Below, in pieces: positions 1 through 27,258 of a DNA stretch of 27,258 nt. Position numbers and translations under genes: made by a program. This stretch comes from a virus: the IMG/VR virus record IMGVR_UViG_3300010883_000334, positions 1 through 27,258 of that record; one strand, 5' to 3'. A model generated the notes under the pieces. The model made no database searches. It was not told the DNA's origin and saw nothing but the letters and a program-made list of their open reading frames with translations. Each line of letters begins with the position of its first letter. Position 1 is the stretch's first letter.

Positions 1-651
1 ACTTGTTGGACTGGGATAGAACCTCAAAAACTAAGTGAAAATAAAGAAATAGTACTTTCTAAGGCTGATGAGATGAAAAAAAATGGTGGTAAGTTAATAT
101 TGAAGAAATTGGCTTCAGACGAGTTTACCATCGCTCAAATTAAAAACCAAATCAGAAAAATAACAGCAGAAGGTATTACTTTAGATATTGTTGTTTTAGA
201 TTATATAGATTGTGTTATACCAGATAGGAGTTATAATGATGAATGGAAAGGTGAAGGTTCTGTTATGAGGAAATTTGAAGGTATGTGTCATGAATTAAAT
301 TTAGTTGGTTGGACCGCAGCACAAGGTAACAGGTCATCAATCTCCTCTGAAGTGGTAACAACAGACCAAATGGGTGGTTCCATTAAAAAAGCTCAAGTAG
401 GTCATGTCATAATTTCAGTGGCAAAAACACTACAACAAAAAGAATTGGGGTTAGCTACTATCGCTATCACCAAGTCTAGGTTGGGCCAGGATGGTATTAT
501 ATTTGAAAACTGTACGTTTAACAACGCTACATTAGAAATAGACACCCAATCGACACAAACCTTCTTAGGTTTCGAAGAGGATAAAACACAAAGAAACCGA
601 AAAAGAGTAATGGATGCTCTAGAAAGAAGGGAAAAAGTATTAAATAAATAA
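1..651 (+). CDS. DnaB/gp41-like replicative DNA helicase, C-terminal part (5' end outside window)
   Basis: The reading frame is open from base 1, so the ATG at 73 is internal and the gene begins upstream of the window. The visible ~216 residues look like the second half of a RecA-fold hexameric helicase, the ring enzyme that unwinds DNA ahead of the phage fork. Features seen are a Walker B-type strand VVLDYID (about 187-207), the motif TAAQGNR (313-333) matching the DnaB H4 'TQ-x-NR' signature, a strand VGHVIISVAKT, and TKSRLGQDG (469-495) matching the 'xKxRxGxxG' arginine-finger region near the end of DnaB proteins. Walker A must lie upstream. The last ~30 residues are highly charged. It is followed after 16 bases by the ribonucleotide reductase gene, consistent with a replication block. 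A RadA- or KaiC-type RecA protein is the main alternative but fits the H4 and C-terminal motifs less well. Confidence 0.82.
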   Translation, partial: TCWTGIEPQKLSENKEIVLSKADEMKKNGGKLILKKLASDEFTIAQIKNQIRKITAEGITLDIVVLDYIDCVIPDRSYNDEWKGEGSVMRKFEGMCHELNLVGWTAAQGNRSSISSEVVTTDQMGGSIKKAQVGHVIISVAKTLQQKELGLATIAITKSRLGQDGIIFENCTFNNATLEIDTQSTQTFLGFEEDKTQRNRKRVMDALERREKVLNK

Positions 652-667
652 AATAAAAATAAAAAAT

Positions 668-2593
668 ATGGAAATTTCAAATAAAATTTTATCGGACATA
701 ACTGTTCATATGAAGTATGCAAAATACACACCGGAGTTAGAAAGAAGAGAAACTTGGGACGAATTAGTTATGAGAAACAAAGCCATGCATATAAAAAAAT
801 ACCCAGAACTAGAGGGTGAAATACAAGAAAAATACAAACTAGTTCATGATAAGAAAGTATTACCATCAATGAGGTCAATGCAATTTGGAGGAAAACCAAT
901 CGAGATATCACCAAATAGGATTTATAATTGTGCGTACCTACCATTAGACCATATAGATTCGTTTAGTGAAACAATGTTCTTATTATTAGGTGGAACCGGT
1001 GTTGGGTACTCAGTACAAAAACACCATGTAGAAAAATTACCCGTAATAAGTAAACCATACCCTAAGAGGAAAAGAAGATTTTTAATTGGGGACTCAATTG
1101 AAGGTTGGGCTGACGCGATTAAGGTTTTAATGAAATCATATATGAATGGTGGTGGGTCTAGAGTAGAATTTGATTTTACAGACATTAGAGCTAAAGGAGC
1201 GAGATTAGTAACGTCAGGTGGTAAAGCACCAGGACCACAACCACTTAAAGAATGTTTAGTTAAGATAGAGGGTATACTATTAGAAAAAGAAAATGGTGAA
1301 CAATTAACCACATTAGAGGTACACGATATTATCTGTTATATAGCTGACGCTGTATTAGCTGGTGGTATTAGAAGGGCAGCTTTAATTAGTTTATTTAGTG
1401 CTGACGACGATTCTATGATATCTTGTAAATCAGGAAATTGGTGGGAATTAAACCCACAAAGAGGTAGAGCAAACAACTCAGCGTGTTTAATGAGACATAA
1501 AATTACTAAAGAATTTTTTATGGACCTTTGGAAACGTGTAGAACTATCAGGTGCTGGTGAACCTGGTATATATTTAAACAATGATAAAGATTGGGGGACA
1601 AACCCATGTTGTGAAATAGCACTTCGTCCATATCAGTTCTGTAATCTTTGTGAAGTCAACGTTTCTAATATAGAATCACAAGATGATTTAAACGAAAGAG
1701 TTAAAGTCGCAGCTTTTATAGGTACGTTACAAGCTGGTTATACTGAATTTCATTACTTAAGAGAAATATGGCAAGAGACCACAGAGAAAGATGCTTTAAT
1801 TGGGGTGTCAATGACTGGGATTGGTTCTGGTAAAGTTTTTGATTACGATATGAAAAAAGCTGCTAGTTTAGTTAAAAGAGAAAATACTAGAGTCTCCAAA
1901 CTACTAGGGATTAACCAAGCAGCTAGAACAACAACAGTTAAACCAGCTGGAACAACATCATTAACGTTAGGTACATCATCAGGAATACATGCTTGGCATA
2001 ATGATTATTATGTTAGAAGGGTTAGGGTTGGTAAAAACGAATCTATATACGCTTATCTAAATATTAACCACCCAGAATTACTAGAGGACGATTACTTTAG
2101 ACCTCACGATACAGCTGTTATTGGTATTCCACAAAAAGCACCTTCAGGTTCAATATTAAGAACCGAATCACCTTTTGACCTATTAGAAAGAGTTAAGAAG
2201 GTAGCAACTGAATGGGTACGTTCTGGACATAGAAAAGGTTCAAATTCACATAATGTATCAGCCACAATTTCATTAAAAGAAGATGAATGGGATGCGGCTG
2301 GTGAATGGATGTGGGAAAATAGAAATTATTATAATGGACTATCTGTGTTGCCATATGATGGTGGTTCGTACATTCAAGCTCCTTTTGAGGATATTACAAA
2401 GGAACGATATGATGTATTGATGAAACTATTAACAGACATTGATTTAACTAAAGTTATAGAATTAGACGATAATACTGATTTATCTGGGGAATTAGCTTGT
2501 TCTGGGGGTAGTTGTGAGATTGATGTCGACTTAAAATCTTTAAAAGAAACCGAAAAAGAAATTCAGTTAAGTGAAAAACAAACCACAACATAA
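668..2593 (+). CDS. nrdJ: Class II (adenosylcobalamin-dependent) ribonucleoside-triphosphate reductase
   Basis: Reduces ribonucleotides to deoxyribonucleotides for phage DNA synthesis, using a B12-derived radical and no oxygen. The 641-residue product matches the monomeric Lactobacillus leichmannii RTPR family (about 740 residues) at every functional cysteine. C88 in YNCAYLP and C325 in QFCNL are the active-site dithiol pair. C314 in NPCCE is the thiyl-radical residue, with N312 and E316 as catalytic partners. C611 and C616 in CSGGSC are the C-terminal shuttle pair. The C314-C325 and C611-C616 spacings of 11 and 5 equal those of C408-C419 and C731-C736 in the model enzyme. KPAGTTS (425-431) followed by GTSSGIHAWH is the class II loop. 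Residue 315 is Cys where Gly is usual (NPCGE). The leader is purely A/T-rich with no Shine-Dalgarno. The 3' end overlaps the next gene by 23 bases. Substrate level (NTP rather than NDP) is inferred from family similarity. Confidence 0.93.
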   Translation: MEISNKILSDITVHMKYAKYTPELERRETWDELVMRNKAMHIKKYPELEGEIQEKYKLVHDKKVLPSMRSMQFGGKPIEISPNRIYNCAYLPLDHIDSFSETMFLLLGGTGVGYSVQKHHVEKLPVISKPYPKRKRRFLIGDSIEGWADAIKVLMKSYMNGGGSRVEFDFTDIRAKGARLVTSGGKAPGPQPLKECLVKIEGILLEKENGEQLTTLEVHDIICYIADAVLAGGIRRAALISLFSADDDSMISCKSGNWWELNPQRGRANNSACLMRHKITKEFFMDLWKRVELSGAGEPGIYLNNDKDWGTNPCCEIALRPYQFCNLCEVNVSNIESQDDLNERVKVAAFIGTLQAGYTEFHYLREIWQETTEKDALIGVSMTGIGSGKVFDYDMKKAASLVKRENTRVSKLLGINQAARTTTVKPAGTTSLTLGTSSGIHAWHNDYYVRRVRVGKNESIYAYLNINHPELLEDDYFRPHDTAVIGIPQKAPSGSILRTESPFDLLERVKKVATEWVRSGHRKGSNSHNVSATISLKEDEWDAAGEWMWENRNYYNGLSVLPYDGGSYIQAPFEDITKERYDVLMKLLTDIDLTKVIELDDNTDLSGELACSGGSCEIDVDLKSLKETEKEIQLSEKQTTT

Positions 2594-2786
2594 AAACCCT
2601 ACCAAACCAACAACCAAAGATGTTTATTGGGAAAATGGGAAAATGGTTTTAACAGAAGAACACCACATAAAAAGAGGTAGTTGTTGTGGGAATGGATGTA
2701 AACATTGTCCTTTTTGGCCACCACACCTTAAGTTAAATAAAGAACTTAGAGGTAATATTTATAATAATAATGAAAGACCTAATTAA
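2571..2786 (+). CDS. Small CCGxGCxHCP cysteine-motif protein (DUF5522-like)
   Basis: A 71-residue protein with a central YWENGKMVLTEEHHIKRG stretch followed by C38-C39-G-x-G-C43-x-H-C46-P. This arrangement resembles the DUF5522 family of small proteins, which is common in Bacteroidota and has no established biochemical role that I know of. The four cysteines and nearby histidines could bind a metal or act as a redox centre; that is inference. The start is taken as the GTG at 2571 because an in-frame TAA lies immediately before it (2568-2570), and the first downstream ATG would cut into the conserved Y-x-x-ENG segment. The gene overlaps the reductase end by 23 bases and the next gene by 17 bases, so translation is probably coupled. 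No signal peptide or membrane segment is visible. Confidence 0.75.
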   Translation: MKNKPQHKNPTKPTTKDVYWENGKMVLTEEHHIKRGSCCGNGCKHCPFWPPHLKLNKELRGNIYNNNERPN

Positions 2787-3003: not shown

Positions 3004-3510
3004 ATGACAATAGCTAGAGAAAGATACGGTGTAGCTTTTCCATTCCAAGACAGTGATAGTGGTTTATTTTTAAAAACAACCACTAGTGTTGCTGAGGAAA
3101 CTAAGGCCAACTTAATACACCTTATATTAACAAGAAAGGGTTCAAGATACTTTTTACCTGATTTTGGTACCAGATTATATGAATATATATTTGAACCATT
3201 AGACAGTACCACATTCCAAGCTATAGATTCTGAACTTAGAGATGTAATAAAAAAATACATACCTAATATAATTGTAAATGAAATAAAGATTGAGAGTCTG
3301 GAGGATGTTAGGGAAAATGATAAAAAAATTAATGACTCCAACCACCCATCTATAATGACTAAAGAAAGTCCCATAGATACGGATTTAGATGATAGGATTT
3401 ATAGGGTTGCTGGTGATGGTACAGAAGAATATACAGCTAAAATCTTTATTGATTATAGCATAAAAGATGATGTCTTTGGTACTAGAGACTTTATTATTAT
3501 AAATTTATAA
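3004..3510 (+). CDS. 25: gp25-like baseplate wedge protein (GPW_gp25 family; P2 W-like)
   Basis: A component of the contractile-tail baseplate that, in T4 and related systems, sits at the inner baseplate where sheath polymerisation begins. The core at residues 35-97 has the family pattern: a helix NLIHLILTRKGSR, then the signature loop YFLPDFGTRLYEYIFEP, then a helix DSELRDVIKKYIPN and the strand IIVNEIKIE. The last strand, around KIFIDYSIKD, closes the fold. The protein has 168 residues, longer than T4 gp25 (132). The extra length is mainly a polar stretch at about 100-142 placed before the last strand. It ends one base before the gp6-like ATG, and this pair is the W-J order of P2-like tails. 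The leader contains GTATTTAT (2991-2998) but no Shine-Dalgarno. Earlier literature called gp25 a lysozyme; a structural role is better supported. Confidence 0.87.
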   Translation: MTIARERYGVAFPFQDSDSGLFLKTTTSVAEETKANLIHLILTRKGSRYFLPDFGTRLYEYIFEPLDSTTFQAIDSELRDVIKKYIPNIIVNEIKIESLEDVRENDKKINDSNHPSIMTKESPIDTDLDDRIYRVAGDGTEEYTAKIFIDYSIKDDVFGTRDFIIINL

Positions 3511-3511
3511 G

Positions 3512-5368
3512 ATGGCAGAGAAAAAAATAGCTTACACAGAAAGAGATTTTTTAGGGTTGAGAAATGAACTACTAAGGTTAACTAATATTTACTACCCAGA
3601 TTTAATTAAAAACGCTAACGACTCCTCAATATATTCAGTTTTTTTAGATTTGAACGCTGCGGTAGCTGACAACCTTCATTTTAATATTGATAGGACTTTA
3701 CAAGAAACAGTATTGGGGTTCGCTCAAGAAAGAAGTTCGATATTTAATATAGCTAGAACATACGGTCTTAAAATACCGGGAAATAGACCTTCATTAACAC
3801 TTTGTGATTTTTCAATTGTAGTTCCAGCTAGGGGTGATAAAGAAGACGCCCGTTATTTGGGTTTTTTAAGGAGAGGGGCTCAAGTAAGAGGTGGGGGACA
3901 AGTATTTGAATTATCAAATGATTGTGATTTTTCATCACCATATAACGTAGAGGGTGTTGTTAATAGAACTAAAATACCTAATTTAAATGCCAATGGTGTG
4001 ATACAAAATTATACTATAACTAAAAGGGAAGTTGTGGTGAATGGAGTTACAAAAATATTTAAAAAAGAAATTACAGACATTGATAGTAAACCATTTTTTA
4101 AGTTATTCTTACCAGAAAGAAACGTATTAGGTGTTACATCTATCATACAGAAAGAAGGTTTGGGGTATACAACATTGCCGTCAGGTTTAGAATTTATAAC
4201 AGCTAAAGATAGTAAATGGTATGAAGTAGATGCTTTAGCAGAATCAGAAATTTTTGAAATAGACCCAACGACACCAGCTGATGAACCAGGAATGAAAGTT
4301 GGTAAATATATTAATACGGATAAAAGATTTGTTAGTGAATTTACACCTGAAGGTTTCTTCTTTTTAACCTTTGGTAGTGGTAATAATAGGTCACAAAAAT
4401 TACTAGACGAATTTTCCAAATATGGGGTTAATGTTAACTTAAATAAATTTATGAATAACATTTCTTTAGGTTCAGCGGTTAGGGGTAACACCACACTTTT
4501 TATACAATATAGGGTAGGTGGTGGTAAAGCTTCTAATTTAGGGGCTGGAGCTATTAATTCTTTAGGGGTTATAGATTTTGTAGTTTCTGGTCCAGTATCA
4601 CTAATTAATAGTAGTGTTTCTAATAGTCTACAAGTTACTAATGTTACGTCAGCTATTGGTGGTGATGACCAAATGTCTACAGAAGAAGTGAGAAATTATG
4701 TAACTTTTAATTTTGCTGCACAAAATAGAGCCGTAACTATAAATGATTATGTGGCCAGAATTAGGACTATGCCCGCTCAATATGGTGCAGCGGCAAAGGT
4801 GGGTGTTACTGAAATAGAAAATAAAATAAGGATTAGTTTATTATCTTATTCACCTGAAGGTTCGTTAACTTCCAGTGTAAGTTCTACACTTAAAAATAAT
4901 GTAGCTGAATATCTTTCTAATTATAGAATGATAAATGATTATATAGAGGTTTCCTCAGCTAACGTTATAGATATAAGTTTAGATGTTGATGTTGTAATAA
5001 CCAACGACGTAAATCAAAGTCAGGTGGTGGGTAATGTAATTAGCACAACTAAAGACTTTTTTAACATAGACTCAAACGAGTTAGGTGAAACCATTAGTTT
5101 AAGTCAACTATATGGTAAAATTTCTGAACAACCAGGTGTTTTAAATGTTATAGATATTAGAGTTTTTAATGAATTCGCTGGGACATACTCAGACTCCCAA
5201 TCATCCCAACCGTACATGAGTCAATCACCAACTAACCCATCTAATAATAGAATAAATGTGGTGGACCAAACATTATTCTTTTTACCGGACGAAATACCAC
5301 AAATCAGATACCCAGATGTCGACATACGTGTTAGGGTAAAACAAATTGATAGGCCAAACTTCTCCTAA
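3512..5368 (+). CDS. 6: gp6-like baseplate wedge protein (baseplate J-like family)
   Basis: The principal wedge protein, which in T4 forms the (gp6)2-gp7 core and ring that changes shape when the tail contracts. The N-terminus (1-75) has the typical start of this family: AYTERDFLGLRNELLRLTNIYYP, then SSIYSVFLDLNAAVADNLHFNIDRT. The middle is a long beta-rich region. A J-like segment lies at about 383-435 and includes GGDDQMSTEEVRNY and NRAVTINDYVARI, the usual 'GGaDxE...NRAVTxxDY' signature. After this come a beta-alpha-beta repeat region and a proline-rich tail. At 618 residues it is close to T4 gp6 (660). It begins two bases after the gp25-like stop. The stop codon lies inside the ascending arm of a possible terminator hairpin. 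Confidence 0.88.
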   Translation: MAEKKIAYTERDFLGLRNELLRLTNIYYPDLIKNANDSSIYSVFLDLNAAVADNLHFNIDRTLQETVLGFAQERSSIFNIARTYGLKIPGNRPSLTLCDFSIVVPARGDKEDARYLGFLRRGAQVRGGGQVFELSNDCDFSSPYNVEGVVNRTKIPNLNANGVIQNYTITKREVVVNGVTKIFKKEITDIDSKPFFKLFLPERNVLGVTSIIQKEGLGYTTLPSGLEFITAKDSKWYEVDALAESEIFEIDPTTPADEPGMKVGKYINTDKRFVSEFTPEGFFFLTFGSGNNRSQKLLDEFSKYGVNVNLNKFMNNISLGSAVRGNTTLFIQYRVGGGKASNLGAGAINSLGVIDFVVSGPVSLINSSVSNSLQVTNVTSAIGGDDQMSTEEVRNYVTFNFAAQNRAVTINDYVARIRTMPAQYGAAAKVGVTEIENKIRISLLSYSPEGSLTSSVSSTLKNNVAEYLSNYRMINDYIEVSSANVIDISLDVDVVITNDVNQSQVVGNVISTTKDFFNIDSNELGETISLSQLYGKISEQPGVLNVIDIRVFNEFAGTYSDSQSSQPYMSQSPTNPSNNRINVVDQTLFFLPDEIPQIRYPDVDIRVRVKQIDRPNFS

Positions 5369-5441: not shown

Positions 5442-8400
5442 ATGCTAAAAAAATTAAGAATAAGAACTGAAATAGGTGTTGATAAGGAAGTCACCTTTGA
5501 TTTAAATCAAGATTTTGATTTACTAGAGATTTTAAGTTTAAATCTACACCAAACAGATGTATACCCAAAAGACTGTTCTGAGTTTGGGGTTGTCTGTGGT
5601 AGGGTCTTAATAAATGGGGGTTTTGGTTTGCCAAACGCAAAAATTTCTATTTTTATACCACTAGATGAAACAGACGAACAAAACCCGCAAGTAAAAGAAC
5701 TTTACCCATATAAAACACAAAACTCTAGAAATGAGATGGGTTATAGATATAACCTACTACCAACCTCACCTAGTTATACCGGACACCTACCATCAGGAAG
5801 TTTTCCAGATGTGGATGACATACTTTTAACACCAACAGTTAGTTATGTCTATAAAAAATATTACAAATACAACGCTAAAACTAACGATGCTGGTGATTTT
5901 ATGATTTATGGTGCACCTTTAGGTGAACAATCACTAGTAATGAATGTAGACCTATCGGACATTGGTTGTTTTTCAATGGTACCAGAAGATTTTAAGTTAC
6001 AAGGATTCCCAGAAAGTGATTTTAATGGGGCCCAATTTAAAACTGGTTCTAATTTAGATTCGTTACCACAAATAATAATGATGTCGAAAGCTGTGGATGT
6101 AAGGCCTTTATGGGGTGATGACGAATCTGGGTGTGGAGCTTCGATTACTAGAGCTGATTTTGATTTAAGAGAGGCTGGAGCGATAGAGATAAAACCAACA
6201 TCGGTATTTATGGGTTCTATAGCTTCAGATAATGAAAAAAATTCTGTAAATAAACAATGTAAACCTAGAAGGGCTATGGGGGAATTATGTAGTTTAGTTC
6301 CACAAGCCGGTACTGTAGAATCGGTAAGGTTTACACCTTTTTGGAAAAAACAAGCCCGACCTAGTGGGTTTACGATAAACCCAGACCTAATAGAGGAAGT
6401 GCCAGTTTTAGAAAGATTTGACATTAATGGTGGTTTTACTATCGATGACAATGGTTCATTTTTACTTAATGTGCCTATGAATTTAGATTATGTTATAACT
6501 AACGAATTTGGTGAAAGAGAGTTGTCACCAGACCCAACAGTCGGAATACCAACCAAGGGTAAATATAGATTTAGGATAAAACCTTTAGAAACTACAGGTA
6601 GTGCTAGACAAAGAAGAAGAGCTGGGTTCCTAGTACCACAAATAAAAGAATATTATTCCACAACCTCTCTTACCATTCCAAGCCCAGCAACTGGACTTCC
6701 ATTGTTATTTAATACTAAAGCGGTAAGAAAGGCTTCGTATTACTTTGGTGTTGATTACTTTAGTTACGCGGAAGAATCTATTAATATGGGTGAAATTATT
6801 TCATGTAAAGACGTATTTTATGAGTTTAGTTATGGGAGAGCTTACGCTGTCTCACAATTTATCAATAAATGGAAAGCCAGACCCAAAGATGCCTTTATTG
6901 GGATAAAAGAAGTAGCCCCGAGAGAAGAAGATGATTGTGGCGGGCAAGCGGTAAAATTCCCAATAAATTCAGCAAACAAAAATGTAAATTTTGCTATAGT
7001 AATGAATCAATTTATCACTAGGTTTTTACAAGCTATATGGACGGCGGTGTATTTTATTATGGTAATGGTATGTACCCTTGTTGATGCGATAGCTGTCATT
7101 TTAGGTGTGATTTTAGGTTTTATAAATGGTATCATGTGTTTTATATGTGTTATAGTTTACGGGCTTCCTGGTGGTGGTACGGTTGGTTCATACTGTAATT
7201 GTTCCTCCTGTCCCTGCTCAAACGTTTCTTTCGCACCACCCTTCTCTTGTTCTAGTTTATTTGGGTGTTTACATTTAAGGGTTACTAAATACCCAGAGTG
7301 TGAAAAATGTGGTTGCTTTTCTACCGGTGGTGGTGGTGGGTGTACATCTGCTTGTGATGGTAGTTGTGATGATGACCCAGACGGTGACCCAGCAGACTAT
7401 ATAGATTGTTCAGGACCATCAATAGAGGATTACGCTTTGGAAGATGGTTGTTACAATATACAGTGGGATAATATTTTAGGTGCTATTAAAGATTTAATAA
7501 CTGGAGACCCAGGACCTATCGCTTCGATTGCTGATTGGAGAAAAAGAGAAAATCTATTTAGGTCCATGTGTGACGGTTTAATGAATTATTTTTGGAGTAA
7601 TAACTGGATTACAGGATTCCTATACGCCTTTCAATTTAAAGCTAAAGTAAAACCAGATAACGATGAAAAAGCTGGATTTAAAATTAAAATGTGTAATGAT
7701 TTAGTTGTTTTTCACCCAGACTCACAAAATTTTTATTATAGATGCACACCCTACTATTATGATATGACCACAAATACTGGATATTTTGAAGGTCAAGCAG
7801 CGTATGACGCACACTCATTCAACGCTTGGAACCTACTTAACCCGGTGGGTATATTAGCTGTACTAAGGGATGTAGCTAGTGTTACACCAGCAGCTGGAGC
7901 TAATAGAAGTAATATATTGTCACCTACAACAATTATGGATTTAGGTCCCTTAATTGAGAATATTGGTGAAATATGTGTTGAAACAGGTGGTTCTGCGGAA
8001 GGATGTTCCGTAGCTAACGATATTGGGGTAACGTCATTTACAGACCCCGGTGAGTTTATGTTTGATTCCGTTAATGAAATCGTAAACGCAAATTCAGGTT
8101 TAGTTAATTTTATAAACCTACAGACACCGTTCAAAAGAAAAGAAACTGGTGGTTGGTTTGCTGGTGATGGTAGAAGAAGAGAACTTAATGGTGGTATGGC
8201 CTCAATACTATCACAATTTAATGAAATTGGTACTGTGGAGTATGAATCGGCTGGGGACATTGGTATTTACTTATTCGGTGCAGATGTAACAACTTCAGGA
8301 CCTAACACTGTCCCAGCTGGACAGATTGGTACGGTCAATACAAGTTTTGCAGCTGGTAATGCTTTCTGGACCGCTGATGGTTTCGGTTGGGATTACGCAC

Positions 8401-17938: not shown

Positions 17939-17942
17939 AAAT

Positions 17943-18884
17943 ATGGCATTAGGAAATTATGGGATTAAAAGACCAGCAGACGTATCACCTAACGACGTAG
18001 AGATAATATATCACTACCAGGCTACAAGAGATGCTAACAGTAGTTTTACATTAGGTACTTTACCGTCCTCCGTTTTAACATATCACGTACATAACAATAC
18101 GACAGCTTCAAATGGTGCAATAGCCGGAACCACAATACTAGGTGGGTTATACCAACTAACACTACCATCGACAGTTTTTAGTAATAAGGGTTTTTATACT
18201 GTATATGTTAGACCGGTAGAAATTAGAACAGAAATTTTAGATTGTGGTGTTTTAGCCGCCCTACCGAATGTAAAAGGTTTAGTTATAGACCTAACCAAGG
18301 TACCAGCACAATTTAAAAATAGATTTGTAAATATGGGGTTAATTGGTTATAGGGTGGAATATATGAATTCAGACAATATACAATCTAATTTAGCTGGCAC
18401 TAAAATACCTAACTTTTTTAGAATAGTAACATCAAGTTTTTATTGTGAAAAATTAATGAATACAGCTGCTAACCCAAACAAAGTTTCACCAAGATATGCT
18501 TACACAGATTCACCCTCTAACTTGGTTTTTTTAACACTATCACCTAGTAGTGCACCAACCAACCAACCAAATGCGTTACCAGATATTGGAAAAGCAGGTC
18601 AAAAAATTATAATCACAAATACATATTTTAACCCAGTTGTGTTAGAAGTTGAAATGGCAGACCACGATTTTGATACGTTAGCTATAGGTTTATACGGTAA
18701 TCAAACCAAATCTATAGAGGATGGGATTTATACGATGTATGATTTATCCGGGGTTAATAACATTTATAAACAATATAATTTATTTGAAATTAGGGACCAG
18801 TTTGACGAACAGTTGTTTGAGGTTAGACAAGATAGGGGAAATCAAATAGATTTTAGTAAACAATTCGGCACAATAGTTAGTTAA
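17943..18884 (+). CDS. Structural protein, unknown, next to the gpI/gp7-like gene
   Basis: A 313-residue protein with no family I recognise. It follows the previous stop after four bases, and the next gene starts two bases after its own stop. The sequence appears beta-rich in the first two thirds (for example FYTVYVRPVEIRTEIL and VKGLVIDLTKVPAQF). The C-terminal quarter is acidic and strand-like (DFDTLAIGLYGNQTKSIEDG, then YNLFEIRDQFDEQLFEVRQD). It has only two cysteines, no membrane segment and no signal peptide. The moderate size, low cysteine content and position directly before the wedge-like gene suggest a conserved baseplate component rather than a host-range module; this is inferred from context only. 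Confidence 0.7.
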   Translation: MALGNYGIKRPADVSPNDVEIIYHYQATRDANSSFTLGTLPSSVLTYHVHNNTTASNGAIAGTTILGGLYQLTLPSTVFSNKGFYTVYVRPVEIRTEILDCGVLAALPNVKGLVIDLTKVPAQFKNRFVNMGLIGYRVEYMNSDNIQSNLAGTKIPNFFRIVTSSFYCEKLMNTAANPNKVSPRYAYTDSPSNLVFLTLSPSSAPTNQPNALPDIGKAGQKIIITNTYFNPVVLEVEMADHDFDTLAIGLYGNQTKSIEDGIYTMYDLSGVNNIYKQYNLFEIRDQFDEQLFEVRQDRGNQIDFSKQFGTIVS

Positions 18885-18886
18885 TA

Positions 18887-21800
18887 ATGGCAAATAACAA
18901 GAAATTCTACTACCCACCCGCACCAGGTAATGGTGCCGGTACTTTTAGTGATAATTTAGTGGGTTCACAATTCACTAATGGTTCACCGCAAATGACAATG
19001 GGTAATTTTTCCATAAGTAATAGTTCTAATTCTAAACAAAATAGAGATTTTAGTTTAGGTGGTTTTTCTGGACCCATAACTTTAGAACAATTAAGTGCTG
19101 GTGATGTTGAGTTAACTAAAAATAGTTTAAACAATAATTTATTAGTAGATTTTAATTATGATAGTAGTGATGTAAGCCAATTTGTACTTTATGGTTCATT
19201 AAAAGATAGGTTAAGGGTTGCGGCTCAACAAATTATTAACTTTTTTCCAGCAGCTTTATATTGTGATGGGATAAACCAAGTATACCACAATAAAGGTAAT
19301 ACGGTGGATAATATATCCTACGATGTTGTTTACGATAGAACAACCATTGTCGTATCTAAATATAAAATATCTAACCCATTCAATATTGAGTTTACGACTG
19401 ATGGTGAAATATTATTAGATAGTTCCTTAGAAATGGATTACTTAATAAATGACCCAACAACTGATAAAATCACAACAACTTCGGTTAAAGCACAAAAAGG
19501 AAAAATATCTCCACTTAGAAACTTTTCACTAGAATATAAAAAGTATTCTCTAAGTTTTAGTGGTAGTGGAAATACACAATACCGAGTGGTAGACTACACA
19601 CCAATAGAAAAAGGAACAACAGGACTGACTATTGTCATATCAGGAGCCCCATTTGGTACTACAGCTACAACATCAGAAACAGAATTTTACATAAAACCAA
19701 ATAATTTCGAAACTCAAAATCAATTTAACAACTTTGAGTCAGTAGAAAAATTCCTACTAAACCAACAAAGTGTTCCACAATATAAAGCAGAACTAACTTT
19801 GCCTAGACAAACCGAAGATGGTAGAAATTATAGTCACATAGAAGATATAATCTGGGAAAAACAAGATTTATGGAATATAGATGTTACTACACAAAAATAT
19901 ACGGACTACCTACAAAAACTTGTAGATGTAGGTAAAGAAATTGATGGGTATAAGACAAACCTAGTATCTAGGTTCCTAACAACTGGAGCGTTAAAAGATT
20001 TTGATACTGGTGAAAGAAAGGTGGAAAAAACTTTACAGATATATGGTAGAAGTTTTGATGAAGTTAAAAAATTCATAGATGGTATAGCTTACATGAATAA
20101 TGTAAGTTATGACGGTAAAAAGAATGTACCAAATCAATTACTTAGAAACCTATCAAAGATGCTAGGTTGGAAAACACCATCAACAACAACAAAAGAACAA
20201 TTTTTAGACACTATTTTAGATAGGTATGAACCACAATATTCTGGAGAATCAATAGGTGTAACACCAGCAGAATTAGATATTGAAATTTATAGGAGGATAC
20301 TAATGAATACATCCTACCTATTCAAATCTAAAGGTACACGAAAAGCAATAGAATTCTTATTAAAATTTATAGGTGCTCCAGAGGCACTAATTGAATTTAA
20401 CGAATACGTAGTTTTAGCTGATAATAGAATTAAAATGGGTAATAAAGTAAAAGACCCTAGATGTAACACATTGTTAGCTTTATTAAACGCTTCTACAAAC
20501 CCTAAAGGACCTAAAGGACCTAAAGGGTCACATAGTCCTAAAGGTCTAGTTTCATCGTCACTTAAAGATGTGGTTACGGTGGACCCTAGAACTAACGAAA
20601 CAACTATATCACCTACGTGGTTAAATGGTGGAAAAAAATCTACTATAGAACTAGAAGAAGCTATAGAATTGTTGGGGTGTTATGATGTTAGTCCAGGATT
20701 TCTAAATCAATACCAATCAGTGTCTGGTGGGTTAGCTACGACTAAGGCTTATCTGTACGATAATATAACCATGAACACCTACATGTCTTCCACTACAGAA
20801 TCACACGGTTTTACAAGAGAAGATTACCCGATAGACAAAGACGGATTCCCAACACAACCAAGAGAAACATCAAACTATTATTTTCAAAGAGGGTCTGGAT
20901 GGTTTGAGGAAACAGAAGAACACCATGGAGAAACTATTCTAGATTTAGAAAATTCTACACTAACTGGTTGTACCCCTAGTATAAAAACAAAATTAAATCA
21001 GTTTAGTTGGGGTGGTTTTTTTGGAAACCTACCACCGAATGTCACATCTAACGACCCTGGAGCTCCTTATCTTGAAAGATTTAGGAGATTCCCATACATG
21101 CATATGGGGTTTGGGTTAAAATCGGTAGTCGATGATAAAAAGTCTTGGGCAACAACAGATACGTTCGGTGAGATAGATAGGAATTATACTTTTGAAAATA
21201 ATAGATATGCTGGGTACCACACACATAATGAAAAGTTTATTTTAAATGTTAAAAATGTAGATATATTTTTAAATGTTGGTCAAGGGTTGGTTTATGATGT
21301 ATGGCAACAATCGGTTTTAAGTGGGTGTCCATTTAGTGGTGGTCCACTACCATTACCTTTCCCACAAAAGGGTGGGGTTGATGATACTGTAAGTTTAATA
21401 AATGGTAAAAATTATTCATTTAAAGATTTTGTACATACTTTTTGGAGTACGTTTATTAATGTAAAAAATAGACAAACAATAGATGATGGTAAAACAGGTG
21501 GGTATCCACTTCTACAAATACTATACCTAGATTATTTAGAACAAGTATGTGGTGAAAACAACCAATACACATATACAAAAATGATAGACTACGCACAAAG
21601 TCTAGGTACGTATTGGATTAGAATTATAGAACAATTAGTACCAGCTACAACATTATGGCAAGGTGGTGTGAAAGTTGAAAACTCACTATTCCACAGAGAC
21701 AAATTTTCATACAAACACTACCCAACTTACCCATTGCCAGGATTTAATAACCCACTTAAGGGGAATTACATCCCTGGTTGTATAGACCCATCCGCTAATA

Positions 21801-22360
21801 ATTTTAATTCTTTAGCAAATAGTAATGATGGAACCTGTACTTATGATTTAGGTGGTGGGGATGGTACGGTGAGAGATGTAGGGGGAACTTTTCCGTGGGT
21901 TGGGTTAACAAGTCCCAATACGGGGTCTACTTGTTCCTCCGGTTGTCAAAATACGGGTAGCACACTAAATAAAATAGACGGTACTGATGAAAATGGTATA
22001 ACAATAACAGACATACCCACTAAAACATGTTCTTGTTGTAGTTTACCAGAAAACAACTCTACCTTACAAATGAGACCATTAAGTGCTACATGTAAGTCTG
22101 TGTGGGCATCCTTTAGGGATTATAATGGGACCTCAGCAACCACATCAAACCAAGGTGTTAATAATAGTGTGAATTTAATTACAGAAACATTTGCGAGTAA
22201 TGTCTCCACAATAAACGGAGCTTATAATATACTTAGTACGATGAATAATAATATAATGTTTAGAGTTAAAAGACCATTACCCTTAAGTAAAAATAAGAAA
22301 GAACCGTGGGGGTATAAATTCGATTTAGGAAAACAAAAGTATCAAGACTATAATGGATAG
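18887..22360 (+). CDS. Giant baseplate protein with P2 gpI / T4 gp7-like core
   Basis: A 1157-residue protein. The region at about 310-510 looks like the tail protein I fold: a helical stretch, then QLLRNLSKMLGWKTPSTTTK, then DIEIYRRILMNTSYLF, and K482-G483-T484-x-x-A487-I488 followed by a helix ending in IGAPE. P2 gpI proteins share this 'LLxxLAxxLG...R...a...h..KGTxxAI' pattern, and gp7 is its proposed T4 counterpart that binds gp6. P2 gpI is only about 180 residues, so this protein carries very large additions. These are an N-terminal ~300-residue region, a collagen-like PKGPKGPKG insert (539-547), a long insertion and a G-C-x-D-P-x-A-x-N-F repeat (964) with C-terminal cysteines (CSSGC, CSCC). 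It overlaps the next gene by eight bases. The gpI assignment is moderate; a structural role is very likely. Confidence 0.66.
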   Translation: MANNKKFYYPPAPGNGAGTFSDNLVGSQFTNGSPQMTMGNFSISNSSNSKQNRDFSLGGFSGPITLEQLSAGDVELTKNSLNNNLLVDFNYDSSDVSQFVLYGSLKDRLRVAAQQIINFFPAALYCDGINQVYHNKGNTVDNISYDVVYDRTTIVVSKYKISNPFNIEFTTDGEILLDSSLEMDYLINDPTTDKITTTSVKAQKGKISPLRNFSLEYKKYSLSFSGSGNTQYRVVDYTPIEKGTTGLTIVISGAPFGTTATTSETEFYIKPNNFETQNQFNNFESVEKFLLNQQSVPQYKAELTLPRQTEDGRNYSHIEDIIWEKQDLWNIDVTTQKYTDYLQKLVDVGKEIDGYKTNLVSRFLTTGALKDFDTGERKVEKTLQIYGRSFDEVKKFIDGIAYMNNVSYDGKKNVPNQLLRNLSKMLGWKTPSTTTKEQFLDTILDRYEPQYSGESIGVTPAELDIEIYRRILMNTSYLFKSKGTRKAIEFLLKFIGAPEALIEFNEYVVLADNRIKMGNKVKDPRCNTLLALLNASTNPKGPKGPKGSHSPKGLVSSSLKDVVTVDPRTNETTISPTWLNGGKKSTIELEEAIELLGCYDVSPGFLNQYQSVSGGLATTKAYLYDNITMNTYMSSTTESHGFTREDYPIDKDGFPTQPRETSNYYFQRGSGWFEETEEHHGETILDLENSTLTGCTPSIKTKLNQFSWGGFFGNLPPNVTSNDPGAPYLERFRRFPYMHMGFGLKSVVDDKKSWATTDTFGEIDRNYTFENNRYAGYHTHNEKFILNVKNVDIFLNVGQGLVYDVWQQSVLSGCPFSGGPLPLPFPQKGGVDDTVSLINGKNYSFKDFVHTFWSTFINVKNRQTIDDGKTGGYPLLQILYLDYLEQVCGENNQYTYTKMIDYAQSLGTYWIRIIEQLVPATTLWQGGVKVENSLFHRDKFSYKHYPTYPLPGFNNPLKGNYIPGCIDPSANNFNSLANSNDGTCTYDLGGGDGTVRDVGGTFPWVGLTSPNTGSTCSSGCQNTGSTLNKIDGTDENGITITDIPTKTCSCCSLPENNSTLQMRPLSATCKSVWASFRDYNGTSATTSNQGVNNSVNLITETFASNVSTINGAYNILSTMNNNIMFRVKRPLPLSKNKKEPWGYKFDLGKQKYQDYNG
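20501..20545 (+). repeat. Nine-base tandem repeat encoding PKG (collagen-like)
   Basis: The unit CCTAAAGGA occurs at 20501-20509 and 20510-20518, with a third copy ending in G at 20519-20527 and a degenerate copy at 20537-20545. It encodes Pro-Lys-Gly three times, then a short spacer and PKG again. Codon choice is identical in every unit, pointing to slippage expansion. Confidence 0.85.
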
Positions 22361-25300
22361 TGTAGAAAAAAATATAAAAAATACCGGTAAATTAGTAAAA
22401 TACAGTAAGCTTATAGATTTAAGACAGGTTACTGATAGTCTACAAGTTAAAGTGTATGCTACTGGTTCACAATACGGTAAAAAATTTAATAAGACATTGT
22501 TTATTACAATGGATTACGATGTCTCAATCCCAGTACAGCTCTATATAATATATAAGGGAAAAAATTTAGTAGAAGGTTTTTTATATTTTAAATCGGAAGA
22601 TTTTAAAATGGGGGAAAATAAACTAAACAAAAAAGATTTTTCATCTGATTTTATTTTAAGATTGCACAGGGAAACTAACAGAACATTATCGTTAAAACAA
22701 GTGGGTACTAAAAGAGACAAATCCCTACTATCCACCCAAGAAATATTTTTACCAGGACAAACGGCAGCTCTACAAGTTTTTTCACCACCAAAGAACGGTA
22801 AATCACACCAAATAGAAATGTTATTACCGGGTATTGGTATAGACCCCACAACCAACGAAAAATCAGAAACAATTAAGAACTTACTATCGTTAGGTTTTGA
22901 TGTTGACATACGAGCTTTTAGTACCACAGGACCAATAACCAGTATATTTTTTAAAGTGGGGGCTCCAGGCACACATGTTGGGTTAGTTAGAAAATATTTT
23001 AAAAATAAAACTGGTGATATTGACAAAGTGACATTAGTAGAACCTAGAAGAATTAAAACATTAACTAAGGCACCTACCAGTTATCTAGAAATGAAAACCA
23101 AAGACCTAGAGTTGGGTCAAGTTAAGTTTAATTATTTTGACTACTTCCAATCGTTAAATCAAGAATATACAGACTACTATTTAAAATCTTCGGAAGTTTT
23201 TATAGTAAAAAATATAGAAAATTATAAATTTACTTTAGGTGATTTTTTAAAAGATAGTGAAAAAGAATTACCATATAACATATCTAGAAAATTAGAAAAT
23301 AATGAAATAGTAACTTCATCTCCATATTTTGATAGGGGGGTTAGAAAATTTCCATTAAGTTGGGTTGATGAGTTTAGGGATAATAAATTTTTTACAGATT
23401 TAAATAGGTGTGTCGATTTTAGTTTCTATAGTTCTGAACACCTTAATAGTTTTGAACAAAGTTTAAAAGAAATACAAATAGCTAATTTAGAGACGTATTC
23501 TTCGGAATACGGTAGTACTAAACCACGTACATATAATAGTATTAACCAGTGGGTAAACAGAACCAACCATGACTACTTTAACGATTTAACAATCACCAAC
23601 TACCCGGGAGGTGGACTTAAAAACTTAACTGTCTGCCCATCAAAAAGAACTAAAGTTACTGAATATGCTAAAAATAATATACAATACAAAGGTACCGAAT
23701 GTGCTTGTAAATACTCAAATGATAGTTCAGAAAAATTACAAACAATCATATCTAAACCTAACGTTAACGAACCTTGTTCAGAAACCTGTAGAAAAACACA
23801 GTTAGAGTTTGGGTATCAAAAATGTTGGACTTGTGAAATGGACTATTACTCACCAATATACGATTTAAGAAATGATTTTTTCGCCACAACTTACTCGACA
23901 ATAAAGGAATCTTTTAGTGCCGCGACTAAATATAGTGAATATACTTCAGGTAGTATTACGGGTTCAAACACTTACGATATATATATTTCAGGTAATGGGT
24001 TTACAGCTGTAACATCACCAACAACGGGGATAGTAATACCACTAAATAATATTAATAGAATAGAACATCGTCCTTTTATTGGTGTTAGTTCACCAGTCTG
24101 GGTACCTTTTAATTCTTGGCAAAGTCTTTCCTCACAAACGGGAACCACAAAGTCATTACCCGGGTCAGGTCCTGTTATAATACAAAGTGGTGACCCAACA
24201 AACTATACGATATATAAAAGTCTAAGTGGTGGGACATACAAGTTTCAATATAACGCTTATCTAGACTTTAAATATAAAGATACTAAATGGTGTGAATACC
24301 TAACAACTAATTATCTTTCAGGAACTACCTCATCAATATCGTACCCATCTACCGAGTATGAGATAAAGAGGTTAATAAATTCATCAATACTAGAATATGG
24401 TACCACTGAAGGTGAAACAGTAAAACAAGATACGGGTGGGGTTTATTTTCCCGGAAAAAATGGGTTAAATAACGATACTGGGTTATTAAATTTTAATTTT
24501 AATATATTTTTAGAAAAACAAACTACAAGTGGTATTATTAGTAATGTTGTAAGTACTACTGTTGGTGCTAGTTCAGTAACCAACACTTCAGCCAACCAAT
24601 ACTTAATCGAAAAAACTAATATTGTTCAAAACACATTTAGTGGTTTTAGTAATTGTTACTCTTCAGGTACTTCAGCCAATACAATATACCACACTAGAGT
24701 GCCTATCACGTTAGATACTGGTTTAATCAGTTTAAGTAGTGGTGAAACAATTATGTTAAAATATAATGTAACGTTTAATGCTGTATCTAAAGTTAGTGGT
24801 GGTGACGCTACAGTAGAGTTAAATTTAGGCCATAAAATTGATTTATCTGGTAGTTCAGTAGCATCACCGTTTTACCGGATAACTAAATATAGTCCAACGA
24901 CTGGTAATACAAGTAATTTACAAAAAAGTCTATTTGTTAACCCACAAAAAATCTCTAAACCACAAAAATTTATAGATGAAGGTGGTGTCGAAACTGAACA
25001 AACAACAAAAGGTACTTTATATGTGATAAATAATGGATACAACCCAATTAGTGCACCGGTAGTAACACAAGAAACATTTAAAAGTTTAACCTTTATTGAT
25101 AACGGATTAGAAAGCAAAACACTTGACTTGGATATGACCATAAATAAACCAAGTAATAATTGGGCTAGACAGATACAAGATAATCAATTAACAGATTACT
25201 ACATACCAAACCAAAAAGATTTGGTAGAGATAAAATCTGGGGTGGTAGTTTTTAATTTACCTAGGTACGACCAAAGAAATTCTGTTACTTGTAATTATAA

Positions 25301-26000
25301 ATTTCCACAGATAAGTCATAGTTACATTATAAAAAATGTAGTATCGAATGTTAGGGGGGTTGACAAAGAACATTACATAGTTGTTACACCAAAAGATAAA
25401 ATATACGTACCATGTTTCACACCTACACTACAAGAAAAATATGAACTAATTGAAAGTCAAATAAAGATTACAGAACAGATTGATAATGTGGACAACCAAC
25501 TAATCATAGATGGACAACCTATCATAATTAAAACAAGTAGGTCAGAACCATTAACACAAATAAAGGCGGATGAAGGTTTTAAATGTAGTTTTTATTGTGT
25601 TTGTCAAGATACAAAGTTGACTAAAGGGTTACACCCATTTTATGGTACTACAGATGTTATAACAGATACAGCAATATTTGATTGTGATGAATGTGAAGAT
25701 AAGGCTGAGGATTATTGTGGTGGGTTAGGTAAAACTTGTAAACCTAAAGTTTTTACAGAAGGTTGTATTGGGGATAAAAGTAATTTATATACATCTGGTG
25801 ATGAGTATTTACTTCCTAACGGAGATGAGTATGTTGGCTTTTATCACATACATGATAGTACACCTATGGTCGGGGCGGTACATAAGTCAGAGTCACATGA
25901 TGAACTAATACCCGTTATGAAAGAAGATTTTTATACGACCAATAAACTAAACTACACAACACCAACAACCACCAATAGTGGGGGTGGAGGTGGATATTAA
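22353..26000 (+). CDS. Giant structural protein with cysteine clusters and C-terminal GxYHIH motif
   Basis: A 1215-residue protein, unrecognised as a whole. Its ATG lies inside the end of the preceding gene (eight-base overlap). Residues 1-420 are basic and beta/alpha mixed with few cysteines, resembling a conserved core. A cysteine cluster (CACK, then CSETC, then CWTC) spans about 426-495 and could be a zinc knuckle. The centre (about 500-900) is Ser/Thr/Gly-rich and fibre-like. A second cluster lies near 1085-1145 (CVC, CDEC, and others). It is followed at about 1148-1190 by a short module with GDEYLLPNGDEYVGFYHIH and MVGAVHKSESH. The histidines of that module could bind metal, and I recall similar Y-x-G-x-Y-H-x-H segments in other phage structural proteins. 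The protein ends in Ser-Gly5-Tyr. Position between the gpI-like gene and a fibre-like gene suggests a baseplate-to-fibre connector; this is inference. Confidence 0.7.
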   Translation: MDSVEKNIKNTGKLVKYSKLIDLRQVTDSLQVKVYATGSQYGKKFNKTLFITMDYDVSIPVQLYIIYKGKNLVEGFLYFKSEDFKMGENKLNKKDFSSDFILRLHRETNRTLSLKQVGTKRDKSLLSTQEIFLPGQTAALQVFSPPKNGKSHQIEMLLPGIGIDPTTNEKSETIKNLLSLGFDVDIRAFSTTGPITSIFFKVGAPGTHVGLVRKYFKNKTGDIDKVTLVEPRRIKTLTKAPTSYLEMKTKDLELGQVKFNYFDYFQSLNQEYTDYYLKSSEVFIVKNIENYKFTLGDFLKDSEKELPYNISRKLENNEIVTSSPYFDRGVRKFPLSWVDEFRDNKFFTDLNRCVDFSFYSSEHLNSFEQSLKEIQIANLETYSSEYGSTKPRTYNSINQWVNRTNHDYFNDLTITNYPGGGLKNLTVCPSKRTKVTEYAKNNIQYKGTECACKYSNDSSEKLQTIISKPNVNEPCSETCRKTQLEFGYQKCWTCEMDYYSPIYDLRNDFFATTYSTIKESFSAATKYSEYTSGSITGSNTYDIYISGNGFTAVTSPTTGIVIPLNNINRIEHRPFIGVSSPVWVPFNSWQSLSSQTGTTKSLPGSGPVIIQSGDPTNYTIYKSLSGGTYKFQYNAYLDFKYKDTKWCEYLTTNYLSGTTSSISYPSTEYEIKRLINSSILEYGTTEGETVKQDTGGVYFPGKNGLNNDTGLLNFNFNIFLEKQTTSGIISNVVSTTVGASSVTNTSANQYLIEKTNIVQNTFSGFSNCYSSGTSANTIYHTRVPITLDTGLISLSSGETIMLKYNVTFNAVSKVSGGDATVELNLGHKIDLSGSSVASPFYRITKYSPTTGNTSNLQKSLFVNPQKISKPQKFIDEGGVETEQTTKGTLYVINNGYNPISAPVVTQETFKSLTFIDNGLESKTLDLDMTINKPSNNWARQIQDNQLTDYYIPNQKDLVEIKSGVVVFNLPRYDQRNSVTCNYKFPQISHSYIIKNVVSNVRGVDKEHYIVVTPKDKIYVPCFTPTLQEKYELIESQIKITEQIDNVDNQLIIDGQPIIIKTSRSEPLTQIKADEGFKCSFYCVCQDTKLTKGLHPFYGTTDVITDTAIFDCDECEDKAEDYCGGLGKTCKPKVFTEGCIGDKSNLYTSGDEYLLPNGDEYVGFYHIHDSTPMVGAVHKSESHDELIPVMKEDFYTTNKLNYTTPTTTNSGGGGGY

Positions 26001-26012
26001 AATTTATAAAGT

Positions 26013-27258
26013 ATGAGTGCATTTCTTAATGAATATTATGTTACCCCTACAGTATCTGGGGTTTCTATTGGTTCTATTAGTGTGGTTAATGTTAGTGGTG
26101 GTACAGGACCTTGGGTGGTAAGTTGGTCGGGGGCAACAGTAAATGGGTATGTAACATCTACTCTATGGGACCAAACTAATTTATCAGAAGGTCTTTATAG
26201 AGCTACAATCACTGATGCTAATGGTAATGTTGGGATAACAAATATTAATCTATTAGCCTATACAAACCCAACTTTTTCCGCTGGAGTAACGTCATATTCT
26301 TGTGTAGACAACCCAAATAAATATTGTGAAGTTACAGTTTATTCAGCTGGTACTAATAATGTTGATAGTCCACTTTCAGGTTCACAATCCGCGAGTACAT
26401 TTAACTATTCGTTATATAAAGATGGTAGTTTATTAAGACAAAGAACAATTGCCAGTGCCGAAACACAAACACCAGTGGTGTTTGAAAATTTAACTAATGG
26501 TGAGTATTTTTTAAGTGTCGGCAGAGAACAAAGTTTAACTCGACATTTTAAAGTTAGTGATTCACAATGTACAGCTTCAACTATAAGTGTTTCAGCTACA
26601 AGTAGTCCAGCTTTTAGACTTTCAGCTATAACATCAGCTTACACCCAAAACTCACATTTTGCTGGAGCTAAAGTTTTTTATGGTGGGAATGGTGTATCTA
26701 CTAATGCAGATATTTACACTACAGGTTTAAACAATTATAGTCATGTTTTAGATGGTGTAGGTCACTGGTTTTTTACTGGTAACACCAGTAGTGGTGGTGT
26801 GATGGATTACCCAAACATAAACCCTAATACCGCAAGAACCACAGATACTGGTAGGTTTTGGTATTTAGGTGTTAGTGGGTCTAGTGAATGTCAAGAAGGG
26901 TGGAATTGTTCACCTAGTGGTGTTGTGGGTGGTAACCCAGTTGTAGCTGCTTCACAAAAAGATTTAACTGGGGGTACTATAAATACTTCCGCTTACAGAG
27001 GAACTTTTTACTACCACCAATACCTTAATAAGTTCTTTGTTTGGGACTCAACAACAGGTTTAACTAATTCCGACTATGCTTGGGTAACATTTAACCCTTT
27101 AGCGGATAGAGGAACCAAAGGAGACCCGGTATCGACAGAGATACTAACTCAAAACAGTAACATATTCCAATATAAAATGTTAGCTCACGTGGGTGACACC
27201 AACATATTTCCATACATTGGTGAGTCTGACGTGGTTAAAGATTATAAAATATATGCTA
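26013..27258 (+). CDS. Fibre/adhesin-like protein with N-terminal SprB-like repeat (3' end outside window)
   Basis: An open frame from the ATG at 26013 continues without a stop to the window edge (415 codons), so the gene is partial. It starts 12 bases after the previous stop, behind an A/T leader (AAATTTATAAAGT) without Shine-Dalgarno. The first ~85 residues resemble a SprB-type repeat: GGTGPWVVSWSG, then LSEGLYRATITDANGN, matching 'GGtgpYxysWsx...LxxGxYxvxvtDaxGc'. SprB is the gliding adhesin of flavobacteria. The rest is Ser/Thr/Asn/Gly-rich and beta-type, with scattered cysteines and aromatic stretches (for example TFYYHQYLNKFFVWDS), as expected of a tail fibre. Position after the gpI-like gene matches the P2 H fibre slot. 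It binds the host, or joins such a fibre to the baseplate; the exact role cannot be read from this part. Confidence 0.74.
   Translation, partial: MSAFLNEYYVTPTVSGVSIGSISVVNVSGGTGPWVVSWSGATVNGYVTSTLWDQTNLSEGLYRATITDANGNVGITNINLLAYTNPTFSAGVTSYSCVDNPNKYCEVTVYSAGTNNVDSPLSGSQSASTFNYSLYKDGSLLRQRTIASAETQTPVVFENLTNGEYFLSVGREQSLTRHFKVSDSQCTASTISVSATSSPAFRLSAITSAYTQNSHFAGAKVFYGGNGVSTNADIYTTGLNNYSHVLDGVGHWFFTGNTSSGGVMDYPNINPNTARTTDTGRFWYLGVSGSSECQEGWNCSPSGVVGGNPVVAASQKDLTGGTINTSAYRGTFYYHQYLNKFFVWDSTTGLTNSDYAWVTFNPLADRGTKGDPVSTEILTQNSNIFQYKMLAHVGDTNIFPYIGESDVVKDYKIYA

What the first reader, a model, noticed from the sequence alone, without database searches (positions are those of the whole stretch)
1..27258. 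No GATC tetranucleotide found in the whole window
Reading the + strand line by line (GATC is palindromic, so this covers both strands), I found several hundred GAT trinucleotides followed by A, T or G, but none followed by C. AATC, CATC and TATC are all common, so ATC itself is not avoided. From my rough base composition, dozens of GATC would be expected. Asp before codons starting with C is written GAC (for example 932-934, 2177-2179, 2911-2913 and 4262-4264), although GAT is the preferred Asp codon elsewhere. This suggests purging of a restriction target (MboI/DpnII-type) or of a Dam-type or DpnI-type site. A general preference for C-ending codons before C may contribute but would not give zero.
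Basis: partly seen in the sequence, partly recalled or inferred. Interest (0 to 1): 0.72.

Follow-up and report, generated by a model that had tools for sequence, protein, structure and literature searches.

The report
Phage lineage purged of GATC sites
This viral DNA really contains no GATC, and hundreds of kilobases from its close relatives almost entirely lack it too, which most likely shows a family of viruses that dodges bacterial DNA-cutting enzymes by losing every copy of the enzymes' target.

Summary
Confirmed: GATC occurs 0 times in 27,258 bp (49 expected by a Markov model; 65 ± 5 by synonymous-codon permutation). The window is an IMG/VR fragment of an uncultured myovirus, probably of Bacteroidota. 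Eleven contigs of its clade (389 kb) hold 1 GATC against about 758 expected; a twelfth, G374, carries it (72 of 132). Of 240 distinct relatives, 129 hold none; a 318-kb contig has 0 of 883, while a syntenic sister, G029, has 364 of 469. The state changed 16 times on the tree, 14 forced. Strongly depleted tetramers are nearly all palindromes (186 of 2,551 tests; non-palindromes 4 of 44,523): the signature of restriction-site avoidance, driven to completion. No phage ORF searched matched Bacteroidota GATC nucleases, and phage methyltransferases do not track GATC retention, so I favour host-imposed selection. Known GATC-nuclease families occur in only 16 of 296 genomes of the presumed host order, so the enzyme is unidentified. 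The phenomenon is known (HF1 haloviruses; Rusinov 2018); the scale, repeated gain/loss and a clade where GATC survives mainly as GGATC/GATCC were not met in my paper searches.

The parts
1..27258 (.). whole window: GATC absent (GCGC also absent)
73..651 (+). C-terminal part of DnaB-like replicative helicase
   Evidence: PHROG 19, E 2.8e-24
668..2593 (+). class II (B12-type) ribonucleotide reductase; all 40 loci with a homologue in the bacterial genome collection (RNR plus flanks) contain GATC
2571..2786 (+). small cysteine-rich protein, probably DUF5522-like (my label by resemblance; the scanned set A1, which holds a member of its cluster, has one PF17653 match, not traced to that member)
3004..3510 (+). 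baseplate wedge gp25-like
   Evidence: PF04965, PHROG 261
3512..5368 (+). baseplate wedge gp6/J-like protein; marker used to find relatives
   Evidence: PF04865, PHROG 219
5442..27258 (+). large ORFs, probably structural/tail by position (5442-8960, 8961-10703, 10690-11664, 11664-14729, 14747-17938, 17943-18884, 18887-22360, 22353-26000, and an open frame to the end); five were scanned against at least one library and none matched

Best explanation
The window comes from a myovirus lineage (lifestyle not tested) whose genome has been stripped of GATC by selection from sequence-specific DNA cleavage in its hosts (shown: the purge, its palindrome specificity, its genome-scale and near clade-wide reach; inferred: the agent). 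Host nucleases that recognise GATC (DpnII/MboI-type, Sau3AI-type, or methyl-dependent DpnI-type) cut any phage copy that carries the site, so each new GATC is removed. These enzyme types respond differently to methylation (DpnII is blocked by and DpnI requires adenine methylation, PMC12707154 passage; that Sau3AI ignores it is recalled), so adenine methylation of GATC gives no general safety and losing the site is the general escape, which would take the count to exactly zero. Lineages that stop meeting such hosts regain GATC.
For: Zero with strong controls; 1 of ~758 expected in 389 kb of eleven clade contigs; 32 of the 33 nearest loci L001-L033 at zero; 129 of 240 relatives at zero, o/e bimodal, and 186 of 190 strongly depleted word-by-contig tests are palindromes (without GATC, 68 of 2,330 palindrome tests); 318-kb contig 0 of 883; what is missing in the zero class amounts to 3,601 expected coding sites over all flanks and phases and 61 intergenic ones in 28 GATC-free contigs; 16 changes of state on the tree, 14 forced by well-supported branches; zero and GATC-rich members in one metagenome, e.g. 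L054 0/30 and L349 92/96; no phage ORF searched similar to the Bacteroidota DpnII, DpnI or Sau3AI-type nucleases; genes of all three families occur in the presumed host order, and one genome there has C5-MTase, Sau3AI-like and DpnI-domain genes in a row.
Against: Known GATC-nuclease families are rare in the presumed host order: union 16 of 296 genomes, 13 over cut-off, far below the 54% of phage contigs at zero. The host itself is only inferred. A GATC-carrying lineage (L016, L209; G374 72 of 132) sits inside the window's clade. Twelve gene clusters occur in at least 4 of 11 long zero contigs and none of 4 long GATC-rich ones, so a phage factor is not excluded. Rusinov et al. hold that modification-dependent enzymes are nearly harmless to unmodified phages, which weakens the DpnI part.
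Confidence: 0.8

Rival explanations
1. The phage itself makes a GATC-cutting nuclease (to destroy host or rival DNA) and is immune because it has no GATC.
For: Zero is absolute over hundreds of kilobases, as an ever-present internal enzyme would enforce. Twelve gene clusters are in at least 4 of 11 long zero contigs and in none of 4 long GATC-rich ones; of six of them scanned against Pfam, one matched above cut-off (PF25735), one weakly (LRR, below cut-off) and four not at all.
Against: No ORF in a redundant set of 5,833 phage ORFs matched Bacteroidota DpnII, DpnI or Sau3AI-type nucleases at E 1e-6. For 289 of 431 ORFs of the 318-kb contig, no restriction-enzyme model stands in the complete PADLOC list of A5 or in the top 25 of the truncated lists of A4 and A6 (which show methyltransferases, helicases and one homing-endonuclease match). 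State changes 16 times among related phages.
Confidence: 0.05
2. Avoidance of methyl-directed mismatch repair (MutH nicking at GATC), as discussed for phiX174.
For: phiX174 lacks GATC and added sites lower its mutation rate (PMC5014478, passages).
Against: In 296 genomes of the presumed host order the 8 with PF02976 have frames of 417-481 aa, like Sau3AI and longer than MutH (both lengths recalled); other palindromes (CATG, TCGA, CCGG, CTAG) are purged in sisters, which MutH does not explain.
Confidence: 0.04
3. Codon or dinucleotide context bias (C-ending codons before C) plus chance.
For: AAC, TAC and CAC are also favoured before C.
Against: Codon-permuted expectation is 65 with minimum 51; the missing sites span all three codon phases and intergenic DNA.
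Confidence: 0.01
4. Another GATC-directed host defence, such as phosphorothioation-linked restriction or an unlisted modification-dependent nuclease.
For: The three nuclease families searched are rare in the presumed hosts; GATC is named as a phosphorothioation motif in archaea (PMC7230728, passages); winged-helix adenine-methylation-dependent endonucleases are described (PMC11037411, abstract start in listing).
Against: No positive evidence; such systems were not searched for here.
Confidence: 0.1

Closest known systems
HF1-group haloviruses (PMC7230728, passages)
   Same: GATC and CTAG completely absent from seven virus isolates of one group; authors infer strong purifying selection by host defences
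   Different: Archaeal viruses, few genomes; here 129 of 240 contigs of an unrelated uncultured family, one contig of 318 kb, with repeated gain and loss
Restriction-site avoidance in phages (Rusinov et al. 2018, PMC6286503, passages and first part of the Discussion)
   Same: Orthodox Type II sites eliminated in non-temperate dsDNA phages; GATC below expectation in 46 of 46 phages whose hosts encode the REase
   Different: There the host enzyme was known; here host and enzyme are unidentified and elimination is complete in many members
phiX174 GATC absence (PMC5014478, passages)
   Same: Genome devoid of GATC (20 expected)
   Different: 5.4-kb phage; the link studied is mismatch repair, and the authors call the forces unclear
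Microcystis phage Mel-JY01 (PP395634)
   Same: Remote relative (25% identical baseplate protein, 67% RNR); GATC 0 of 348 and CTAG 0 of 152 in 185 of its 190 kb
   Different: Recorded host is a cyanobacterium; CTAG purged too

Membership tests
Type II restriction-site avoidance by phage | site far below expectation with composition and codon controls | tested here: met
Type II restriction-site avoidance by phage | depleted words are palindromes | tested here: met
   186 of 2,551 palindrome tests against 4 of 44,523 others; without GATC 68 of 2,330
Type II restriction-site avoidance by phage | acts on DNA, so also in non-coding sequence | tested here: met
   61 expected and 0 seen in 50,346 intergenic bases of 28 contigs, which were chosen because they are GATC-free as a whole
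Type II restriction-site avoidance by phage | host encodes a nuclease for the site | tested here: inconclusive
   host unknown; 16 of 296 genomes of the presumed order have a DpnII, DpnI or MutH/Sau3AI hit; presumed class DpnII 9 of 295, MutH/Sau3AI 11 of 295
Type II restriction-site avoidance by phage | site presence lowers plating on the restricting host | not testable with these tools
   no culture
Mismatch-repair (MutH) avoidance | host has Dam and MutH | tested here: inconclusive
   PF02976 in 8 of 296, all long Sau3AI-like frames; host unknown
Self-protection by phage methyltransferase | GATC carriers encode a GATC MTase and purged phages do not | tested here: not met
   N6/N4 MTases in 5 of 50 long records, four GATC-zero and one GATC-rich; GATC-rich G029 (101 kb) has none found; MTase specificities unknown and contigs incomplete
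Phage-encoded GATC nuclease with self-immunity | phage gene for a GATC nuclease | tested here: inconclusive
   no homologue of three known families in 5,833 redundant ORFs; zero-only genes of unknown function exist

The most novel reading that the evidence does not exclude
GATC is a site that these phages cannot make safe by adenine methylation, because host populations carry complementary nucleases: DpnII-type for unmethylated sites, DpnI-type for adenine-methylated sites and Sau3AI-type for both, sometimes stacked in one operon (C5-MTase, Sau3AI-like and DpnI-domain genes in G092). This 'no safe state' trap would force purging to exactly zero even in a 318-kb genome fragment that encodes several methyltransferases. 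The clade in which GATC persists mainly as GGATC/GATCC would be phages with partial, overlapping protection.
Probability: 0.25. Interest if true: 0.68.

Novelty: new member of a known kind. Interest (0 to 1): 0.45.

Why it matters
It is a large natural experiment in restriction-site avoidance: many related phages, some with exactly zero GATC over 80-318 kb and some near normal, with 16 inferred switches. That would allow direct tests of how strong and how constant restriction is in nature, and site status might serve as a marker of host range for uncultured phages. The gap between purging (129 of 240 contigs) and known GATC nucleases in the presumed host order (16 of 296 genomes) points to unrecognised or strain-variable enzymes.

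Tried and rejected
Library artefact (GATC-cutting preparation): rejected, since several metagenomes yield both GATC-free and GATC-carrying members and a 27-318-kb GATC-free stretch could not come from a normal genome. Codon-context bias: rejected. Phage MTase explaining retention: not supported. Gene-content contrast: six clusters occur in at least 2 of 4 long GATC-rich contigs and in no zero contig; four were scanned: two glycosyltransferase-like, one small-molecule-methyltransferase-like, one without match; two were not scanned. The opposite set (twelve zero-only clusters) holds unknown proteins and is reported as evidence for a rival. The baseplate scan of bacterial genomes found no relative, so the host was inferred from the RNR scan and the lack of Shine-Dalgarno motifs; a Bacteroidota promoter-motif count was uninformative (56 against 49 for controls in the window's clade). 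Strand asymmetry of residual GGATC sites, suspected, did not hold on longer contigs. PADLOC lists for A4 and A6, and the Pfam and PHROG lists for A1 and A2, were cut at 25 families, so weak nuclease hits may be hidden. The listing of a search for Mel-JY01 showed no paper with that name (5 of 65 rows shown, ranked by terms held). The first script for the class comparison crashed on an N and was redone in part.
Full report
OBSERVATION. The window has no GATC in 27,258 bp. A maximal-order Markov model expects 49.3 (z -8.3, the most extreme of 256 tetramers), and within-gene permutation of synonymous codons expects 65.2 ± 5.3 with a minimum of 51 in 500. GAT before A, G and T, and ATC after A, C and T, are common. 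Asp before C is GAC 64 times and GAT never, against AAC 56/AAT 33 and TAC 50/TAT 18, so a general context preference exists but cannot give zero. GCGC is also absent (6.7 expected).

WHAT THE WINDOW IS. An IMG/VR virus record of 27,258 bp with a DnaB-like helicase end, class II ribonucleotide reductase, gp25-like and gp6/J-like baseplate proteins and giant ORFs: part of a myovirus. No tRNA or Rfam match. The named records found are remote (25-28% identity in the baseplate protein, 6 records: an uncultured 484-kb phage, Flavobacterium phages immuto, Microcystis phage Mel-JY01). Upstream regions of 204 ATG-starting genes of the window's clade show no excess of AGGAG, GGAGG or AGGA (AAAGG 6 against 1.8) and are A-rich, as recalled for Bacteroidota. 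Of 40 RNR matches in the genome collection 36 carry Bacteroidota names; the others are one Nitrosarchaeum, one Campylobacteraceae and two Rickettsiales MAGs, and some top matches lie beside phage-like genes. Host: probably Bacteroidota (inference). All 40 RNR loci, flanks included, contain GATC, mostly near expectation (lowest ratio 7 of 21.8). The labels marine and freshwater that I used while working rest on recall of sample numbers, not on a call.

REACH OF THE PURGE. Among the 33 nearest loci (L001-L033, 61-96% identity in the baseplate protein) 32 have zero GATC and L016 has 14 of 26. Eleven of this clade's contigs fetched whole, window included (389,154 bp), hold 1 GATC against about 758 expected; GCGC is 14 against about 124 (sums). 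A twelfth, G374, which holds L016's near-identical sister L209, has 72 of 132. The longest contig, 318,164 bp, has 0 of 883; its locus L253 was dropped as a duplicate of L252. The zero class, zero by definition, lacks 3,601 expected coding sites in every flank context and all three phases; 28 GATC-free contigs lack 61 expected intergenic sites. Remote relative Mel-JY01 has 0 of 348 GATC and 0 of 152 CTAG; immuto is normal, 136 of 143 in 42 kb.

PALINDROME SPECIFICITY. Among word-by-contig tests with at least 12 expected, o/e below 0.12 occurs in 186 of 2,551 palindrome tests and 4 of 44,523 non-palindrome tests, the latter being the mutually complementary CCAG and CTGG; GATC leads (118 of 221), then CATG 39 of 212, TCGA 11 of 117, CCGG 6 of 124, CTAG 5 of 156. 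Without GATC it is 68 of 2,330. Contigs are related, so tests are not independent.

EVOLUTION. On an 83-row maximum-likelihood tree the zero state needs 8 changes; on 241 rows (FastTree) 16, of which 14 are forced by well-supported branches; three sets of identical baseplate proteins fall in more than one class. Two syntenic 101-kb contigs, G027 and G029, have 0 of 271 and 364 of 469. One metagenome can hold both states, e.g. L054 0/30 and L349 92/96.

A THIRD CLASS. In a group of 23 contigs (chosen by fetch number L387-L414 and o/e 0.1-0.5; one clade with support 100) HGATCD is 24 of 269 expected while GGATCD is 122 of 102 and GGATCC 25 of 15. Over five longer contigs of this group (G379 represented by 40,000 of 42,591 bases; the locus of G385 had been dropped as a near-duplicate) the gradient is GGATCC 24 of 14, GGATCD 83 of 161, HGATCC 40 of 88, HGATCD 33 of 207 (sums); GATC-rich contigs show a milder tilt (1.39, 1.32, 0.85, 0.87). 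Members share sites by descent, so effective counts are smaller. It may reflect overlapping protection or a flank preference of the enzyme.

MECHANISM. Phage methyltransferases: PF02086 in 1 of 50 records, the remote uncultured 484-kb phage, and in 5 of 39; PF01555 in 5 of 50; PF00145 in 3 of 50. The five records with N6/N4 MTases are four GATC-zero and one GATC-rich, so they do not explain retention. No phage ORF of 5,833 (redundant) resembles the DpnII, DpnI or Sau3AI-type nucleases taken from Bacteroidota genomes; only neighbouring MTases match. Genes seen only in zero or only in rich long contigs exist and are mostly of unknown function. In 296 genomes of the order of G050, which is titled Flavobacteriaceae, so presumably Flavobacteriales: DpnII 2 (1 over cut-off), DpnI 7 (5), MutH/Sau3AI 8 (8), together 16 genomes (13); D12 MTase 76 (72). 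In 295 genomes of its class: DpnII 9 (9), MutH/Sau3AI 11 (10). One genome, G092, has a C5-MTase (63% identical to the PF00145 protein of L203), a Sau3AI-like nuclease and a DpnI-domain protein in a row. DpnII is blocked by and DpnI requires adenine methylation (PMC12707154, passage); that Sau3AI ignores it is recalled. I infer host restriction as the driver; the low frequency of known enzymes is unexplained and may reflect strain-level variation, other families or unsampled hosts. Rusinov et al. consider modification-dependent enzymes nearly harmless to unmodified phages, which speaks against a large DpnI share.

KNOWN WORK. HF1-group haloviruses lack GATC and CTAG in all seven isolates (PMC7230728, passages). 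Rusinov 2018 (PMC6286503, passages and first part of the Discussion) finds site elimination mostly in non-temperate dsDNA phages and GATC below expectation in 46 of 46 phages with matching host enzymes. phiX174 has no GATC (PMC5014478, passages). Seven paper searches touching GATC or site avoidance (listings of at most 25 rows each) showed no title on this phage family's purge; the library holds open-licence papers only.

VERDICT. Observation confirmed and explained as an extreme, almost clade-wide case of a known strategy. Interest lies in scale, reversibility and the missing enzyme.

Noticed in passing
L387-L414 clade (e.g. L391, L398; G363, G371, G379, G382, G385): GATC survives mainly in GGATC/GATCC context: HGATCD 24 of 269 expected, GGATCD 122 of 102 in a group of 23 contigs that forms one clade.
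   Followed up: partly
L511 967-4029 (genome G092, contig C24): Three genes in a row: C5-methyltransferase-like, Sau3AI-like nuclease and a 162-aa DpnI-domain protein, which together could cut unmodified and adenine-methylated GATC.
   Followed up: partly
eleven contigs of the window's clade, window included: GCGC is also nearly purged: 14 seen, about 124 expected; G374 2 of 18.
   Followed up: no
G030, G042, G041, L071, L072: Other palindromes are purged in single lineages: CCGG 0/41, CATG 0/43, TCGA 0/18, CATG 1/34, ACGT 0/13.
   Followed up: no
Microcystis phage Mel-JY01 (PP395634): GATC 0 of 348 and CTAG 0 of 152 in 185 kb; CCAG also low (33 of 185); its RNR is 67% identical to the window's.
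   Followed up: partly
G010:12172: The single GATC in the 389-kb set; could be a transient mutation or a sequencing error.
   Followed up: no
G354 196266-209478 and elsewhere: Genes shared by several long GATC-free contigs and absent from four long GATC-rich ones, mostly without Pfam match.
   Followed up: partly
G027 about 57687-75183: Run of genes that probably includes many of the glycosyltransferase and nucleotide-sugar matches found for this contig's proteins; matches were not traced to single ORFs.
   Followed up: no
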